64,000 bases of DNA from Lachnospiraceae bacterium (GTDB lineage Bacteria > Bacillota > Clostridia > Lachnospirales > Lachnospiraceae), in NCBI GenBank assembly GCA_017556805.1, contig JAFYMC010000014.1, positions 62,001 through 126,000 on the forward strand. The letters run 5' to 3'. A program made the position numbers and the translations under genes. The notes beneath the pieces were generated by a model. That model saw only the letters and a program-made list of their open reading frames with translations, was not told the origin of the DNA and searched no databases. Shown one piece after another: positions 59,965-64,000 of the stretch. Each line of letters starts with the position of its first letter. The first letter of the stretch is position 1.

Positions 59965-60886
59965 TTGCCTCCCCTCCCTTTTTTACCGCTTCCTCAAAGG
60001 TTTCCTCCGACATCTGTCCAAAGGTCTCCTTCACCGAAAACTCCAGCATTCCGGAATACAATTTCGTTTCACCGCTCTCCTTTAACTGACGTCGGAACTC
60101 CTCCTGAATGTTTCTTCCTTGTTCCGTTTCCCACACCGGAACAAGCATAAAATCACAACAACTCAGTACGTTTCTTCCCGTCCTGTCAAAGGCTCCCACA
60201 GCTACAAAAAAAGCCTCATATTTCGTATCCCATCTGTCATTTTGTAATAATGCTTTTATATCCTCCTTGGTCACACTGTCCAGGTCCGTATACCACCGCA
60301 CCGGACCGATACTATCCATATGTTCCTCGCACTGCAGCAGATGTTGTAACGAAATCCGCTCGCCCTCCTTCTCCTGCCGGACAAAATACAGAGCCTCCGA
60401 CAATCCGTCCGTATAGCTCCTTCCGCAGCTCCCGAAAGGAAACAGCGAAAGATACAATACTTTTCCTTTTCTGCTCAATCGTTTCGCAATTTCACAGGAA
60501 AGAAGCTCTGCTTCACAGCCGCCCGCCGGCGAGAAAAATCCCAGTATCGGAATTCGTTTTTCAACCTCCTTCCGCTCACTCAAACGTCGCTCGATTTCCT
60601 TCACGGAACCGTAACGATATAACACCGAACTGTCTCCTCTGTCCCTACTGTCGCTCAACCGGAACAGCTTCACCTTCGTCCCCAGTGTCGCCTCTAATAT
60701 TTCCTTTTCCAAGCCCTCCGATGCCACTACGGCATACACTCCGTCGGTTTTGATATAACCTCTTGCCTCCTCTGTCGTCGCAAATAAAACCGCACGATAG
60801 GGAAACGTACGACAGGCATTTAAATACAACGCCAACCGTCTTCCGTACTCCGGCATGTCATCGATAATTACAACCAGCTTTTCCAA
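59903..60886 (-). CDS. TadZ/CpaE-like protein with degenerate P-loop
   Basis: 327 residues if started at the TTG at 60886 (EKLVVIIDDMPEYG), which follows AGAGGGG; the longer frame upstream crosses the promoter. An N-terminal receiver-like half (1-110) is followed by a MinD/ParA-like half in which the Walker A segment reads FFSPAGGCEAELLSCEIA, without the usual lysines. TadZ proteins are often atypical ATPases that place the system at a cell pole. Confidence 0.78.
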   Translation of the reverse strand: MEKLVVIIDDMPEYGRRLALYLNACRTFPYRAVLFATTEEARGYIKTDGVYAVVASEGLEKEILEATLGTKVKLFRLSDSRDRGDSSVLYRYGSVKEIERRLSERKEVEKRIPILGFFSPAGGCEAELLSCEIAKRLSRKGKVLYLSLFPFGSCGRSYTDGLSEALYFVRQEKEGERISLQHLLQCEEHMDSIGPVRWYTDLDSVTKEDIKALLQNDRWDTKYEAFFVAVGAFDRTGRNVLSCCDFMLVPVWETEQGRNIQEEFRRQLKESGETKLYSGMLEFSVKETFGQMSEETFEEAVKKGGEAIAGSCGGNTKADAGTAGFVG

Positions 60887-61236
60887 CGACACCCCTCTTT
60901 CGTCATTTGTTATTAAATTTGTGTGGGAAAATTGACCTTCGTTCGAAAGTCGTATGCTCGAATCGAGCTTCGATACCATCATCATAGACCCTTTTGGCCC
61001 CAAAGTCAACCGCTTTTGGGCAATTTAATTTTTTTCGCCTTTTTTACCAAACTTTCTCCGTATTTTTGTGAAAATCGACGAAATTTTCCCGTGTCAGTTT
61101 CCATAATAAATCCGCTGTTTCTGCGCATTTGATGCACTTTTTTCTCCCAAAAGATTACAAATCGTATCTTTTCGGTATAATCCCGTTATCCGACGTCTAT
61201 ACTTACAATAAAATACAGAAAGAAGGATGTTTTACT
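60887..61236. other. Divergent region between the Tad-like operon and the DUF2508 gene
   Basis: No gene. Leftward promoter at 60981-61009; small palindrome GCTCGAATCGAGC (60956-60968) just after its start point, a possible operator. Rightward, a good -10 (TATAAT at 61180-61185) lacks a clear -35. Confidence 0.5.
60981..61009 (-). promoter_or_regulatory. Promoter of the Tad-like operon
   Basis: Read leftward: TTGACT (61004-61009), 17 bp, TATGAT (60981-60986). Confidence 0.7.
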
Positions 61237-61458
61237 ATGTCTTCACCATTTCGTAAAAAAAGAAAAACCGAAAATCCCCTCTTAAAGGAGTTACATGCTA
61301 CCCGTCTGGAGCTGGAAACCGCCTACTCCGTATTTGAAAATGCCGTAGACCCGGATCTGGTGTCCAGCAGCATCTACCGCATCAACGCCGTACAGGAACG
61401 TTATCAGTTCTTGTTAAAGCAAATAAAAAAGACCGAGGCAATGCTACAGTCTTCGTAA
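61237..61458 (+). CDS. DUF2508 (YaaL-like) protein
   Basis: 73 residues from the ATG at 61237 (after AGAAGGAT). Helical and charged, LLKELHATRLELETAYSVFENAVDPDLVSSSIYRINAVQERYQFLLKQ in outline (only parts are diagnostic: the ETAYSVFENAVDPDL and YRINAVQERYQFLLK blocks) fits DUF2508. In Firmicutes this gene usually lies next to recR; here it stands alone, so the context gives no function. Confidence 0.8.
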   Translation: MSSPFRKKRKTENPLLKELHATRLELETAYSVFENAVDPDLVSSSIYRINAVQERYQFLLKQIKKTEAMLQSS

Positions 61459-61462
61459 AAAC

Positions 61463-61503
61463 AATCCCCGACTCTATCATACAGATAGTTCGGGGATATT
61501 TTC
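61463..61503 (+). terminator. Terminator after the DUF2508 gene
   Basis: ATCCCCGA and TCGGGGAT arms with an inner CTATC/GATAG stem, then ATTTTCT. Probably also used by the converging XRE gene. Confidence 0.75.
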
Positions 61504-61515
61504 TAATATGGATTT

Positions 61516-62601
61516 TTACTTTAAAAGTTCCAATATTTCTTTGAATTCCTCTCGTTTCCGCGCCGGGGCGTAGGCATCTTCCGTGAGCCAGCGGTCTCTG
61601 AAATACTGGCGGTCTGTCCTGGAATCCACTGCTTCTTCCTCACACCTACGAAATGTTCTCTCTCCCAACAGTACACTATTCAACTTCACCTCTTCCGGGG
61701 AATTATCGGATGCAACCGCTGCCTCTGCCGCCGTTCGTAACTGCTCCAAAGCCTCATCCACTCGTCCCAACTCTAATAAAAATTTTGCCCGCAGAGAATG
61801 ATTATCCGCATTTGCCCATGTCCCGAACAGCTGGTGATTATCTTCCACAAGACATTCTAACGCTTCATACTTATCCAAAACCGCCAGAGCATCTTCTGCC
61901 GGAAGTATATGCACTAATCGGTCACAGGCATCCATCATATGTTCATAGGCATGTTGCATGTATTTTCTGGTATACGGCACTTTCTCTTTTTCCTCCAATG
62001 CCCACCAGATTGAACGTTCCCTGCACCATACCATCGTCGGAATTGTCTCATAAATGGAACGACCGATTGCTTTTCTCCCCATTTCACAGTGTTGAAAAGC
62101 CAAACGCGCCGTCGCTTCGGTGCGAAGTTCCACATCCGGGCAATATTTCATGATACGCTCACCAAGGGCAACAATTTCCCCGTCGTACTTCTCCTGATTC
62201 TCCTTCCAGTTCGGAATATCCGCATCACTACTTGTTATTAAAAACATCGTATACATCAATTCGTTTAACAATGTATAATTGTTCGGGAACTCGGCTACAC
62301 CCTCTCTGGCAATCTGAATGCTTTCTTCTAAAGCTGCACGGTTCAGCGCCTCTTTAATTCGCTTCATATACGCATCCACTGCCTTCTTTTCCATCTCCTC
62401 ATCTACACCCAGCAGCTTATCTACCGACACCGCAAAAAAGCCGGCAATGGTCGGAATCAGCTCCATGTCCGGGTAGCAGGTACCGTTCTCCCAACGGGAC
62501 ACAGACTGGCAGGATACTCCCAGCACCTCAGCAAATTCCTCCTGGGTAATTTCTCGTTCTTTCCTCAATTTCTTTATGGTTTCTCCAACTTTTAATTTCA
62601 T
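61516..62601 (-). CDS. XRE-family helix-turn-helix regulator with helical-repeat domain
   Basis: 361 residues. The HTH is clear at residues 7-60 (IKKLRKEREITQEEFAEVLGVSCQSVSRWENGTCYPDMELIP). The remaining 280 residues are all helical with tryptophan- and leucine-rich pairs resembling TPR repeats (FPNNYTLLNELMYTMF, LRAKFLLELGRVDEALEQLRTAAEA), as in peptide- or ligand-sensing regulators. Target genes unknown; the divergent small membrane protein is a candidate. Confidence 0.85.
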   Translation of the reverse strand: MKLKVGETIKKLRKEREITQEEFAEVLGVSCQSVSRWENGTCYPDMELIPTIAGFFAVSVDKLLGVDEEMEKKAVDAYMKRIKEALNRAALEESIQIAREGVAEFPNNYTLLNELMYTMFLITSSDADIPNWKENQEKYDGEIVALGERIMKYCPDVELRTEATARLAFQHCEMGRKAIGRSIYETIPTMVWCRERSIWWALEEKEKVPYTRKYMQHAYEHMMDACDRLVHILPAEDALAVLDKYEALECLVEDNHQLFGTWANADNHSLRAKFLLELGRVDEALEQLRTAAEAAVASDNSPEEVKLNSVLLGERTFRRCEEEAVDSRTDRQYFRDRWLTEDAYAPARKREEFKEILELLK

Positions 62602-62957
62602 TCTTTTGTCCTCACTTTCTTGTTATGGAAAGCAGCGCTCTTTCTGATTGTATTTTACAGGAAATATAGGTTAGATACAATATCACGCGGAGAGAGTTTT
62701 TTTCACCATGGAAGTGATTTTTGAGCAATGAAGAAAAACATTTGGTATAAACAGTCATATTATGATATAATGTGAAAAGAACGAGGATAAAATGGGCTAC
62801 GGTATTTGTTATTTTCATTCTCATTTATATCGTGTCTTTTGATCATTGAGATTCCGTGGGTATTAGCGCTTTGTGTATGTATCTGTTACAGTTTCCGGTT
62901 GCATGACCGGAAGTCAGATATTCGGGGGTAAATTACATTTTAAATGTTGGAGGAAAT
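62602..62957. other. Divergent intergenic region, A/T-rich, with possible decayed small ORFs
   Basis: Leftward promoter for the XRE gene: TTGTAT (62675-62680), 17 bp, TAAAAT (62652-62657). Rightward: TTGGTA (62742-62747), 18 bp, TATAAT (62766-62771) with extended TGA. After it a GAGG-preceded ATG (62792) opens only 16 codons. Other frames of 62785-62935 encode hydrophobic segments (WATVFVIFILIYIVS, then LLIIEIPWVLALCVC) split by frame changes, perhaps a broken small membrane protein. Confidence 0.4.
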
Positions 62958-63359
62958 ATGAGCGAATTAGCTGATAAAGACAAAGAGTTTTTCTACATGC
63001 TTAAGGAATTTTGGACAACTGTGTCTGATTTCAATGTGTTTATAGGTATTATAGGTATTATTTTGGGTTTTGCTCTATTGGTTATTCTGCTGCGCCGGAT
63101 AAATGAAATAGAATCAAGAAATAAAAAAAAGAAAATGGAAACGGCTATAGCGTTGGGACATGTGGTAACGGCAGAAAGAATAAAGTTTTGGGATGATGCA
63201 ACACCGGGAGAACCATCGACCTCTTCACGATACCACGCTACTTACAGATATGTGGTTAATGGCAAAGCATATGAGTATAGATACTTGGGGCCGAAATATC
63301 CGAAAGAGGAACTCCGGATGTATTATATCGACAATCCTCGAAAAGTGTTCTTCGATTAA
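62958..63359 (+). CDS. Small membrane protein, DUF3592-like
   Basis: 133 residues. A short N-terminal polar part, one membrane helix (about 25-47, FIGIIGIILGFALLVILL), a charged segment, then a small beta domain (TAIALGHVVTAERIKFWDD, YHATYRYVVNGKAYEYRYL, MYYIDNPRKVF) that resembles DUF3592, function unknown. The region is more A/T-rich than its neighbours. Ribosome site TTGGAGGA. Confidence 0.62.
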   Translation: MSELADKDKEFFYMLKEFWTTVSDFNVFIGIIGIILGFALLVILLRRINEIESRNKKKKMETAIALGHVVTAERIKFWDDATPGEPSTSSRYHATYRYVVNGKAYEYRYLGPKYPKEELRMYYIDNPRKVFFD

Positions 63360-63647
63360 CAATAAAAGAATTGTTCCTGTATCTTTTATTTGTTAATTAT
63401 TATTGTTGCGGTAAGTGTTATTCTTTTCCTTTATCAGATATAATTCGGAGAAAAAACACCAATCGAAACGACCGATGTCAATTTTTATTTGCAATACCAA
63501 AGAATCATCGGTGGGTGTGCCCCTTCCCACATTTCTTTTGACCCGGAGGGTGCGTAGTAGCACAATCTCTACTTCGATAATTCTGTTTCCAGAATATCAT
63601 ATGTTTTACTCTTGTAAATATCCTCTTTGAGAAAATTTGAAAAAACC
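63360..63647. other. Intergenic stretch, nothing recognised
   Basis: No gene, RNA or clear repeat seen between the DUF3592-like gene and the attenuator promoter. Reading frames here lack ribosome sites. Confidence 0.4.
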
Positions 63648-63677
63648 TTGACACCCCTCCCCCTCTTATGCTATCCT
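63648..63677 (+). promoter_or_regulatory. Promoter of the attenuated operon
   Basis: TTGACA (63648-63653), 18 bp, TATCCT (63672-63677) with extended TGC. Confidence 0.75.
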
Positions 63678-63702
63678 AATAAAAAATTTAAGGAGCACAC
63701 AT

Positions 63703-63762
63703 ATGAATCAGAGCAGACAGACTTATGCATATATTATTTATTACAGACGTATTTGCTTGTAG
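63703..63762 (+). CDS. Leader peptide of a transcription attenuator
   Basis: 19 codons after AAGGAG at 63690-63695 (7-base spacing). The second half reads T-Y-A-Y-I-I-Y-Y-R-R-I-C-L: four Tyr codons within seven positions and three Ile. The stop (63760-63762) lies 9 bases before the first hairpin strand of the attenuator. A ribosome stalled on the Tyr/Ile codons or on the peptide itself would cover that strand and favour the antiterminator. Too short for a structural protein. Confidence 0.75.
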   Translation: MNQSRQTYAYIIYYRRICL

Positions 63763-63771
63763 CCCCGCACT

Positions 63772-63882
63772 CGCGCAGCTATAAGCCGATAGGTCTTATG
63801 TCTGTGCGAAACTGTACGCTTTGATTTACCATACAAAGAGTTTACCGCATCGGACAGAAAGACCTGTCCTGTGCGGTTTTTT
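63772..63882 (+). promoter_or_regulatory. Transcription attenuator (pause hairpin, antiterminator, terminator)
   Basis: 1:2 hairpin: CGCGCAG (63772-63778) with CTGTGCG (63802-63808) plus ATAAG/CTTAT. 3:4 terminator: ACCGCA-GGACAG (63844-63857) with CTGTCC-TGCGGT (63864-63877), then six T. 2:3 antiterminator: AGGTCTT (63791-63797) can pair with AAGACCT (63859-63865), plus weaker pairing beyond. Confidence 0.8.
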
Positions 63883-63911
63883 ATTTACGCAAGCGACCAC
63901 GCCCAACGCGC

Positions 63912-63931
63912 GAGTTCCGCAAGCGGAACTC
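63912..63931 (+). promoter_or_regulatory. Hairpin upstream of the right-edge gene
   Basis: GAGTTCCGC (63912-63920) and GCGGAACTC (63923-63931) form a tight 9-bp stem with a 2-base gap, 37 bp before the ribosome site; role unknown. Confidence 0.5.
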
Positions 63932-63979
63932 ATCAAATGTCGTACCCTGATTCCTTGTACTCGTGAAAAGGAGGACCCT

Positions 63980-64000
63980 ATGAACCCGAATGTAACACTG
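63980..64000 (+). CDS. Start of the attenuated gene, cut by the right edge
   Basis: ATG at 63980 after AAGGAGG (63968-63974); only MNPNVTL is visible. Identity cannot be told. The Tyr-rich leader peptide would fit aromatic amino-acid biosynthesis; an antibiotic-inducible gene is the alternative. Confidence 0.6.

What the first reader, a model, noticed from the sequence alone, without database searches (positions are those of the whole stretch)
63648..64000. Complete leader-peptide transcription attenuator with tyrosine codons at the right edge
The sequence shows a promoter, a 19-codon ORF with a good ribosome site and four Tyr codons in seven positions, and three mutually exclusive pairings (1:2 pause, 2:3 antiterminator, 3:4 terminator with six U). 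Established: Clostridia usually control amino-acid genes with T-boxes, while short leader peptides with hairpin switches are better known from enteric trp/phe operons and from antibiotic-induced genes. A Tyr-type leader in a Lachnospiraceae-like genome would be unusual. The controlled gene starts MNPNVTL and is cut, so its function is unknown.
Basis: partly seen in the sequence, partly recalled or inferred. Interest (0 to 1): 0.82.

Follow-up and report, generated by a model that had tools for sequence, protein, structure and literature searches.

The report
Tyrosine-codon attenuator guarding an acetyltransferase
A short tyrosine-rich leader in a gut bacterium appears to act as a switch that lets an acetyltransferase be made only when the ribosome stalls for lack of tyrosine-loaded tRNA; it seems to belong to a family not yet named, with an arginine version that guards a spare arginine-loading enzyme.

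Summary
In detail: promoter, 19-codon leader MNQSRQTYAYIIYYRRICL and terminator are where stated. The cut gene is a GNAT acetyltransferase followed by a HIT-domain gene. Leader and hairpins recur in relatives: 54 loci analysed. A core model hits 22 of 397 genomes of the family (one only through an Arg-type element) and, in a class-wide sample of 391, only the window's own. No Rfam match. There are five strands; leader codons R-R-I-C-L-stop are strand 1. Folding with a ribosome on each codon predicts read-through for stalls at codons -14 to -10 in 54 of 54 loci and the terminating 2:3 pairing at -3 to -1 in 44-46 of 54. Tyr fills 139 of 350 codons at -12 to -6, with TAT/TAC exchange. The Tyr form precedes a divergent TyrRS in 3 of 53 loci; an Arg form precedes ArgRS in 8 of 12, and all 11 leader-ArgRS genomes counted have a second ArgRS. 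So: a codon-matched, ribosome-mediated attenuator. Resistance to synthetase inhibitors is inferred (about 0.45). No experiment was done.

The parts
63648..63677 (+). sigma-70 type promoter, TTGACA-18-TATCCT with TG before the -10
   Evidence: similar -35 boxes in many relatives
63690..63695 (+). ribosome-binding site AAGGAG of the leader ORF
   Evidence: sequence; recurs in many relatives
63703..63762 (+). leader ORF MNQSRQTYAYIIYYRRICL-stop; Tyr codons 8, 10, 13, 14
63745..63763 (+). strand 1: codons R-R-I-C-L-stop plus one base (AGACGTATTTGCTTGTAGC), pairs with strand 2
   Evidence: 39 loci: 97.6% of cells paired, 20 double-change cells, 0 of 500 shuffles as high on these
63772..63796 (+). 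strand 2: 63778-63796 pairs with strand 1; 63772-63785 (CGCGCAGCTATAAG) pairs with strand 3
63795..63808 (+). strand 3 (CTTATGTCTGTGCG), pairs with strand 2 (OFF) or strand 4 (ON)
   Evidence: shares 63795-63796 with the 1:2 helix
63845..63865 (+). strand 4: 5' arm and loop of the terminator; pairs with strand 3 as antiterminator
63864..63882 (+). strand 5: 3' arm of the terminator (63864-63876) and six T
   Evidence: sequence; (47 distinct rows: 93.2% of cells paired, 51 double-change cells)
63970..64000 (+). GGAGG and start (ATG 63980) of the GNAT acetyltransferase gene; continues beyond the window
   Evidence: Acetyltransf_1 on the C-terminal piece, (the first 82 residues alone match no Pfam model)

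Best explanation
It is a tyrosine-codon-specific, ribosome-mediated transcription attenuator. (i) A ribosome that reads through the leader covers strand 1 (the R-R-I-C-L-stop codons); strand 2 then pairs with strand 3, strand 4 is free for strand 5, and RNA polymerase terminates before the acetyltransferase gene. (ii) A ribosome waiting for Tyr-tRNA at Tyr codons 8 or 10 leaves strand 1 free; 1:2 forms, strand 3 is free and takes strand 4, no terminator forms, and the GNAT gene, probably with the HIT gene behind it, is transcribed. (iii) Without a ribosome the folding model leaves the antiterminator unformed in the window and in half of the loci, apparently because upstream sequence ties up strand 3. 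Shown from sequence: the parts, their conservation, covariation of 1:2 and 4:5 (some for 2:3), the amino-acid-level conservation of Tyr codons, and the match of codon to synthetase in the Tyr and Arg forms. Computed: the codon-by-codon switch. Inferred: that the signal is uncharged tRNA-Tyr. Inferred with less certainty (about 0.45): that the natural trigger is an inhibitor of TyrRS and that the GNAT and HIT enzymes detoxify it.
For: 54 loci analysed with leader, strands and terminator, 51 of them from the 58 pattern hits. Structure. Codon-resolved folding: Tyr form, ON at -14..-10 in 54 of 54, 2:3 at -3/-2/-1 in 44/46/44 of 54; Arg form, 12 loci, mean P(3:4) peaks at 0.73 at codon -10, beside or in the Arg run, and is 0.07 or less from -4 on. 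Tyr = 139 of 350 codons at -12..-6 over 50 distinct leaders, against 4.1% in window ORFs of 300 or more residues; TAT/TAC counts 16/14 at -6, 32/4 at -7, 5/18 at -9. 46 of 47 Tyr-bearing leaders have a Tyr codon in the predicted ON zone. TyrRS is the first gene in 3 of 53 loci (PF00579; L045 scores 384.8 bits with TIGR00234, cut-off 113.8); it is 27-30% identical to the other TyrRS type, which two of the three genomes also have. Arg form before ArgRS in 8 of 12 loci (PF00750 just downstream in all 8). All 11 genomes with Arg leader and ArgRS have two full ArgRS; G002 and G025, with one ArgRS of this type, have no such leader. GNAT is the first gene in at least 33 of 53 loci (several first genes are cut fragments).
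Against: No transcript or reporter data. 7 of 50 distinct leaders have no Tyr codon, and L103, found later by the model, has Asp codons instead. The antiterminator 3:4 shows little covariation: 4 double-change cells (11 of 500 shuffles as high), and three of six slid controls have more of them; it rests mostly on sequence conservation. For 2:3 two of five measures do not exceed shuffles; for 4:5 two of five exceed them only weakly (58 and 41 of 500 as high). 9 of 54 loci fail the early-ON/late-half criterion. In the model a stall at almost any early codon turns the switch on, so a general slow-down would do so too. The last Tyr codons (-7, -6) lie where only 31 of 54 loci are ON, and in the window they are not. 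For GNAT genes codon identity cannot be checked against a known substrate, and GNAT, HIT and phosphorylase families are common. The GNAT profile finds 43 GNAT-type entries among solved structures, none named MccE.
Confidence: 0.82

Rival explanations
1. The leader senses ribosome-targeting antibiotics through drug-dependent stalling, as leaders of lmo0919, bmrCD or msrD do, and the GNAT is the resistance enzyme.
For: GNAT is the first gene in at least 33 of 53 loci; in the folding model a stall at any codon from -16 to -10 turns ON at least 51 of 54 loci; some leaders lack Tyr; such leaders exist in Firmicutes (abstract starts and passages).
Against: The conserved C-terminal RRICL is explained by pairing with strand 2. 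The part that varies is filled with codons that match the synthetase downstream (Tyr/TyrRS, Arg/ArgRS). Synonymous exchange at Tyr codons fits codon sensing but does not exclude peptide sensing.
Confidence: 0.12
2. Same mechanism, other trigger: the signal is plain tyrosine starvation, and the regulated genes serve growth without tyrosine rather than resistance to an inhibitor. (This overlaps with the best explanation, so the odds do not add up to one.)
For: The switch would be identical; synthetases are ordinary targets of such control; several synthetases of this genome use T-boxes.
Against: I recognised no tyrosine biosynthesis or transport gene among the 53 first genes by eye or in the 25 of 42 Pfam families listed. 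The controlled synthetases are second copies in 11 of 11 Arg genomes and 2 of 3 Tyr genomes (in the third only this TyrRS was found). GNAT, HIT, phosphorylase, phosphodiesterase and one S66 peptidase close to MccF-like proteins do not look like a tyrosine pathway.
Confidence: 0.35
3. The switch reads all NAY codons (Tyr, His, Asn, Asp; the tRNAs with a GUN anticodon, which carry queuosine, recalled), so that damage to or undermodification of that tRNA set is the signal, not Tyr alone.
For: Of 50 distinct leaders 47 have two or more of Y/H/N/D at -12..-6; His, Asn and Asp together make 41 of 211 non-Tyr codons against 10.4% in window ORFs (binomial p 9e-5, relatedness ignored). L053, L087 and L088 have His where others have Tyr, and L103 has Asp.
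Against: The excess is His; Asn is near and Asp below background. CAY, AAY and GAY are one-base neighbours of TAY, so drift gives some of them (41 first-base against 16 second-base neighbours). The TyrRS loci have Tyr.
Confidence: 0.08
4. A chance short ORF in a conserved RNA that is a riboswitch or protein-binding leader.
For: High sequence conservation of strands 2 and 3, partly due to the search pattern itself.
Against: The third base of the stop codon varies TAA/TAG in step with its pairing base (AU 17, GC 14, GU 7, other 1 of 39), Tyr codons vary synonymously, and Arg-type relatives keep the design with another amino acid.
Confidence: 0.03

Closest known systems
Amino-acid leader-peptide attenuators of enteric bacteria (trp, his, phe; recalled)
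   Same: Short ORF with a run of regulatory codons, mutually exclusive hairpins, terminator with U run, coupling to the ribosome.
   Different: Five strands with strand 1 made of the last leader codons and stop codon; a stalled ribosome works by leaving strand 1 free rather than by covering it; the first gene is mostly an acetyltransferase or, less often, an extra synthetase.
His leader peptides before hisZ and a hisS paralogue in bacilli (PMC2965389, passages seen) and before his operons in Peptostreptococcaceae, Erysipelotrichales and the B. cereus group (PMC9413887, passages seen)
   Same: Codon-run leader attenuators in Firmicutes, one of them on a synthetase paralogue.
   Different: Histidine; other families of bacteria. 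The word acetyltransferase does not occur in the main text of PMC2965389; PMC9413887 was not searched for it.
Streptomyces auxiliary, antibiotic-resistant TrpRS under ribosome-mediated attenuation (Vecchione and Sello 2010; only the title seen, in the reference list of PMC4787780; the paper is not held)
   Same: By its title: an extra synthetase controlled by ribosome-mediated attenuation.
   Different: Trp in Actinobacteria; here Tyr and Arg in Lachnospiraceae, and acetyltransferases under the same switch.
T-box leaders
   Same: Sense uncharged tRNA in Firmicutes; a T-box-like leader precedes the TyrRS of this genome.
   Different: No T-box match in 60000-64000; here a ribosome reads codons.
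Microcin C immunity enzymes MccE (GNAT domain), MccF (peptidase), HIT hydrolases (PMC7157772, passages seen)
   Same: Enzyme kinds: GNAT in most loci, HIT next to GNAT in this genome and in L062, an S66 peptidase in L083 (E 6e-88 to a MccF-like protein, 2e-40 to MccF).
   Different: Only a resemblance of kinds; the GNATs matched no PDB entry named MccE; substrates unknown; S66 and HIT were each found in 1 of 35 second genes scanned.

Membership tests
ribosome-mediated amino-acid attenuator | short ORF with ribosome site, conserved in relatives | tested here: met
   54 loci analysed; 7 of the 58 pattern hits dropped: 3 off-target, 3 without an intact leader in my extraction, 1 without terminator
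ribosome-mediated amino-acid attenuator | run of codons for one amino acid, conserved as amino acid | tested here: met
   7 of 50 distinct leaders lack Tyr
ribosome-mediated amino-acid attenuator | mutually exclusive terminator and antiterminator | tested here: met
   complementarity kept in 94-98% of cells; covariation strong for 1:2 and 4:5, some for 2:3, weak for 3:4
ribosome-mediated amino-acid attenuator | codon identity fits the regulated gene | tested here: inconclusive
   fits for TyrRS (3 of 53 first genes) and ArgRS (8 of 12 loci); cannot be judged for the GNAT of the window
ribosome-mediated amino-acid attenuator | read-through rises when the amino acid's tRNA is uncharged | not testable with these tools
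   needs cells or coupled transcription-translation in vitro
T-box riboswitch | T-box core and antiterminator | tested here: not met
   no T-box match in 60000-64000 at E 10 or better
drug-sensing leader attenuator | drug-dependent arrest in the leader | not testable with these tools
   RRICL conservation is accounted for by strand 1:2 pairing, which does not exclude arrest
attenuator of an auxiliary synthetase | the controlled synthetase is a second copy | tested here: met
   ArgRS: 11 of 11 genomes with Arg leader and ArgRS have two over the Pfam cut-off, 2 without leader have one; TyrRS: 2 of 3. Does not apply to the GNAT locus of the window itself
attenuator of an auxiliary synthetase | the extra synthetase resists an inhibitor | not testable with these tools
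   no assay
microcin C immunity (MccE) | sequence relation of the GNAT to MccE | tested here: inconclusive
   profile search of solved structures lists 43 entries, none named MccE; absence from that list is not proof

The most novel reading that the evidence does not exclude
Lachnospiraceae carry a modular alarm, with Tyr and Arg versions and perhaps others, that reads which tRNA is uncharged and switches on matching resistance genes (extra TyrRS or ArgRS, GNAT acetyltransferases, HIT, S66 and phosphodiesterase enzymes) against unknown natural inhibitors of TyrRS and ArgRS, perhaps peptide-nucleotide compounds made by neighbours in the gut. The leader would thus name the target of an antibiotic not yet found.
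Probability: 0.4. Interest if true: 0.86.

Novelty: new variant of a known kind. Interest (0 to 1): 0.72.

Why it matters
If right, it adds an amino-acid-coded attenuator family in a major gut family, beside T-boxes, and ties it to accessory enzymes. Because the leader spells the amino acid whose charging fails, each locus predicts the synthetase hit by an unknown inhibitor and lists candidate resistance enzymes, which makes the search for such compounds and enzymes directly testable.

Tried and rejected
RF02924 skipping-rope RNA at 63503-63582 minus: Rfam match but on the other strand and upstream of the promoter; not counted as a part. Three pattern hits dropped as off-target (L048 Acinetobacter, L057 Bacteroidales, L091 Prevotella); L043, L071, L074 and also L026 left out for lack of an intact leader in my extraction, L076 for lack of a terminator. 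Six of 54 loci (L055, L058, L059, L065, L066, L086) left out of alignment A1 for unusual spacing or extent. For A2, five of 54 were left out for long spacing and ten of the remaining 49, mostly as near-duplicates. The pattern fixes most of strand 3, so conservation there is partly imposed; the less biased count is the model search, whose 25 places include one opposite-strand echo and two Arg-type elements. R2 hits outside the family (3 genomes, 23.7-26 bits) and L192 taken as chance; 11 of the 24 R2 places are opposite-strand echoes. One genome of another family (G798) has two ArgRS matches and no Arg leader; L162 (G793) shows an Arg-rich short ORF of another plan that I take as chance. Second genes: 44 of 53 loci examined, 36 had a following ORF, 35 were scanned (L038 left out). 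The reading-frame control for Tyr codons is not clean: frame 0 150 of 700, frame +1 11 of 700, frame +2 104 of 700. PADLOC scan of first genes gave scattered hits, most of them weak. The sequence search of solved structures with a single GNAT found nothing. A tblastn of the first 82 residues in plasmids gave one Bacillus GNAT, 39% identical.

Literature: ten searches listed no paper whose title or abstract start describes Tyr or Arg leader attenuators in Lachnospiraceae; the library holds only open-licence papers, so this is weak evidence of novelty.

Full report
What is there. The right edge of the window holds a promoter, a leader ORF and a terminator as described, and the RNA folds much better than shuffles (z -6.2). 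The window is bases 62001-126000 of a contig of 126225 bases. The gene at 63980 begins MNPNVTLTLATEQDAELIHLMKYEAFLPLYEIYRDDETSPVKEP and runs off the contig; another contig starts with the last 141 bases and carries the remainder, followed by a HIT-domain gene and a phosphorylase-family gene (Pfam: Acetyltransf_1, HIT, PNP_UDP_1). By eye a promoter-like stretch separates the HIT gene from the phosphorylase, so the likely transcript is GNAT-HIT.

Relatives. In 250 genomes of the same family 29 have a GNAT match. In two passes over upstream regions about ten of them show a leader of the same plan. A pattern for the conserved box gave 58 stretches in 84,980 species genomes: 55 with names of Lachnospiraceae, other Clostridia or Bacillota, and 3 off-target. 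After dropping those and 4 without intact leader or terminator, 51 remain; with the window and L009 and L010 the working set is 54 loci. A typical peptide is MNQNLHSRRYMYMYYRRICL. Because the pattern fixes most of strand 3, I built a covariance model (R1) from 39 loci covering strands 1-3; it hits 22 of 397 genomes of the family, G288 only through an Arg-type element, and, in a class-wide sample of 391, only the window's own genome. Both samples were searched with strict filters. Rfam has no match for the attenuator in the window or in six carrier loci.

Anatomy. RNAalifold pairs the codons R-R-I-C-L-stop (strand 1) with GTTATAAGCCGATAGGTCT (strand 2) and finds the terminator. Pair counts: 1:2, 97.6% of cells paired, 5 pairs and 20 cells with double changes, 0 of 500 shuffles as high on these three, 14 of 500 on pair types (39 rows). 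4:5, 93.2%, 51 double-change cells, 0 of 500 on three measures, 58 and 41 of 500 on the other two (47 distinct rows). 2:3, 95.9%, 10 double-change cells, 0 of 500 on three measures, 133 and 473 of 500 on the other two. 3:4, 94.0%, 4 double-change cells, 11 of 500, and three of six slid controls have more such cells. So the antiterminator rests on sequence conservation and complementarity more than on covariation. By eye, leader codons N-L-H-S (CTTACATTC) are complementary to a conserved GAATGTAAG between strands 3 and 4; in the window the fold pairs this part of the leader with a stretch just downstream of strand 3.

How it should work. I folded each RNA up to the end of strand 4 with a ribosome-sized block (13 bases before to 15 after the first base of the P-site codon) at each codon (14 loci, 54). 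With the A site at -14 to -10 from the stop, strand 3:4 forms with P above 0.5 in 54 of 54 loci; at -7 and -6 in 31 of 54; at -3, -2 and -1 strand 2:3 has P above 0.5 in 44, 46 and 44 of 54. Without ribosome 27 of 54 are ON; the window is not. In the window the Tyr codons at -12 and -10 lie in the ON zone (P 0.62-0.63) and those at -7 and -6 do not. The criterion early ON, late at most half, holds for 45 of 54; the exceptions are L055, L059, L060, L073, L080, L082, L083, L085 (early mean at 0.50) and L010. This is a thermodynamic model with an assumed footprint; the codon at which the switch tips depends on that assumption.

Why tyrosine. Over 50 distinct leaders Tyr is 139 of 350 codons at -12 to -6, against 4.1% in window ORFs of 300 residues or more. 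Tyr is kept while its codon changes: TAT 16 and TAC 14 at -6, 32 and 4 at -7, 5 and 18 at -9. The Arg codons of strand 1 hardly vary (CGT 45 of 45 Arg at -4, AGA 37 of 39 at -5), while Leu at -1 alternates TTA 22 and TTG 20, which keeps a pair. Tyr codons lie in the predicted ON zone more often than others (131 of 169 against 445 of 695, Fisher p 7e-4, relatedness ignored). Met is also enriched (18.9% against 2.9%), which I cannot explain.

Codon and gene match. The first gene of 53 loci (54 less L060, whose contig ends) matches GNAT Acetyltransf_1 in 33, type I phosphodiesterase in 4, TyrRS in 3, TIM-barrel AP_endonuc_2 in 2 (25 of 42 families are listed there, and some first genes are fragments). 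The three TyrRS loci (L045, L049, L081) have leaders with three Tyr in a row. These TyrRS are 76-99% identical to each other and 27-30% to the other TyrRS type, present in two of the three genomes and in the window's genome. In the window's genome the TyrRS has a T-box-like leader; no T-box was found near the other-type TyrRS of the two genomes (L134, L137). R1 also found, at 35 bits, a second element in the window's own genome, before an ArgRS with leader MNIFLQNSLRRRQRRMLL (PF00750). A model of seven such loci (R2) hits 10 of 397 family genomes; of 12 plausible loci 8 precede ArgRS (PF00750 just downstream in all 8), 2 a methyltransferase (one in the window's genome), 1 a BlaI/MecI-like gene (by eye), 1 unclear. 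Copy number: the 11 genomes with Arg leader and ArgRS (G000, G781, G783, G784, G024, G006, G288, G096, G277, G345, G127) each have two ArgRS over the Pfam cut-off; G002 and G025, where this type is the only ArgRS, have one and no such leader. In the 27 first-type ArgRS loci, drawn from 61 genomes, 6 have the leader, one (L162) has an Arg-rich ORF of another plan, and 20 have none. In the Arg form the model gives, over 12 loci, mean P(3:4) highest at codons -11 to -9 (0.68, 0.73, 0.65), beside or in the Arg run, and 0.07 or less from -4 on; without ribosome 10 of 12 are below 0.05 and two are at 0.69 and 0.42. L180 hardly switches on, L177 stays below 0.5, and in L172 and L182 the peak ends at or just before the first or second Arg.

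What the regulon may do. Genes under the Tyr form are of kinds that modify or split small molecules: GNATs, HIT (window genome and L062), phosphorylase family (4 of 35 second genes), NUDIX (3 of 35), an S66 peptidase in L083 that matches MccF-like proteins at 6e-88 and MccF at 2e-40. PMC7157772 (passages) says that processed microcin C, which acts on aspartyl-tRNA synthetase, is inactivated by the GNAT domain of MccE, by MccF and by HIT hydrolases. With extra synthetases under the same switch, a regulon against synthetase inhibitors is the reading that joins the parts best; but these families are common, no enrichment test was made, and no entry named MccE appears among the solved-structure matches of the GNATs. 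I give it about 0.45.

Known or new. Leader-peptide attenuators are an old kind; His versions in Firmicutes are in print, and by its title a paper reports an auxiliary TrpRS gene controlled this way (Streptomyces is recalled). Ten searches of the open library listed no account of the Tyr or Arg form in Lachnospiraceae (call numbers in Tried and rejected). I therefore rate it a new variant of a known kind, with the five-strand order, the use of the leader's last codons and stop codon as strand 1, and the kind of target genes as the differences.

Noticed in passing
window 63503-63582 (-): Match to Rfam RF02924, skipping-rope RNA, 54.5 bits (cut-off 36.7), just upstream of the attenuator promoter and on the other strand.
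   Followed up: no
window 63912-63931: Perfect 9-bp inverted repeat GAGTTCCGC-AA-GCGGAACTC between terminator and GNAT gene; only copy in the window.
   Followed up: partly
L181 (G000:C36:157831-157916) and L179: Arg/Glu-rich leader (MNVMRNSLERREERRLL in the window's genome) before a class I methyltransferase, also in a congener.
   Followed up: partly
leaders of the Tyr form, codons -10 and -8: Met codons are strongly enriched (66 of 350 at -12..-6), often in a Y-M-Y-M pattern; no explanation.
   Followed up: no
L053, L087, L088, L054, L083: Leaders with His codons where others have Tyr; in L053, L070 and L087 the second genes start alike (M[QK]... KYMRIQGRE...KYPKGIFGMCWR), and that of L087 matched no NCBIfam model.
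   Followed up: partly
L103 (G070): Leader MKHNLHSRRDMDMDLRRIRL, with Asp where the others have Tyr, upstream of what looks by eye like a phosphorylase-family start; possibly a re-targeted version.
   Followed up: no
L008 (+), upstream of the GNAT: The terminator segment appears to be repeated in degenerate form several times between attenuator and gene (seen by eye).
   Followed up: no
L014 / L043: A stretch interrupts the leader ORF between its first codons and the Tyr part, so this copy may be broken (seen by eye).
   Followed up: no
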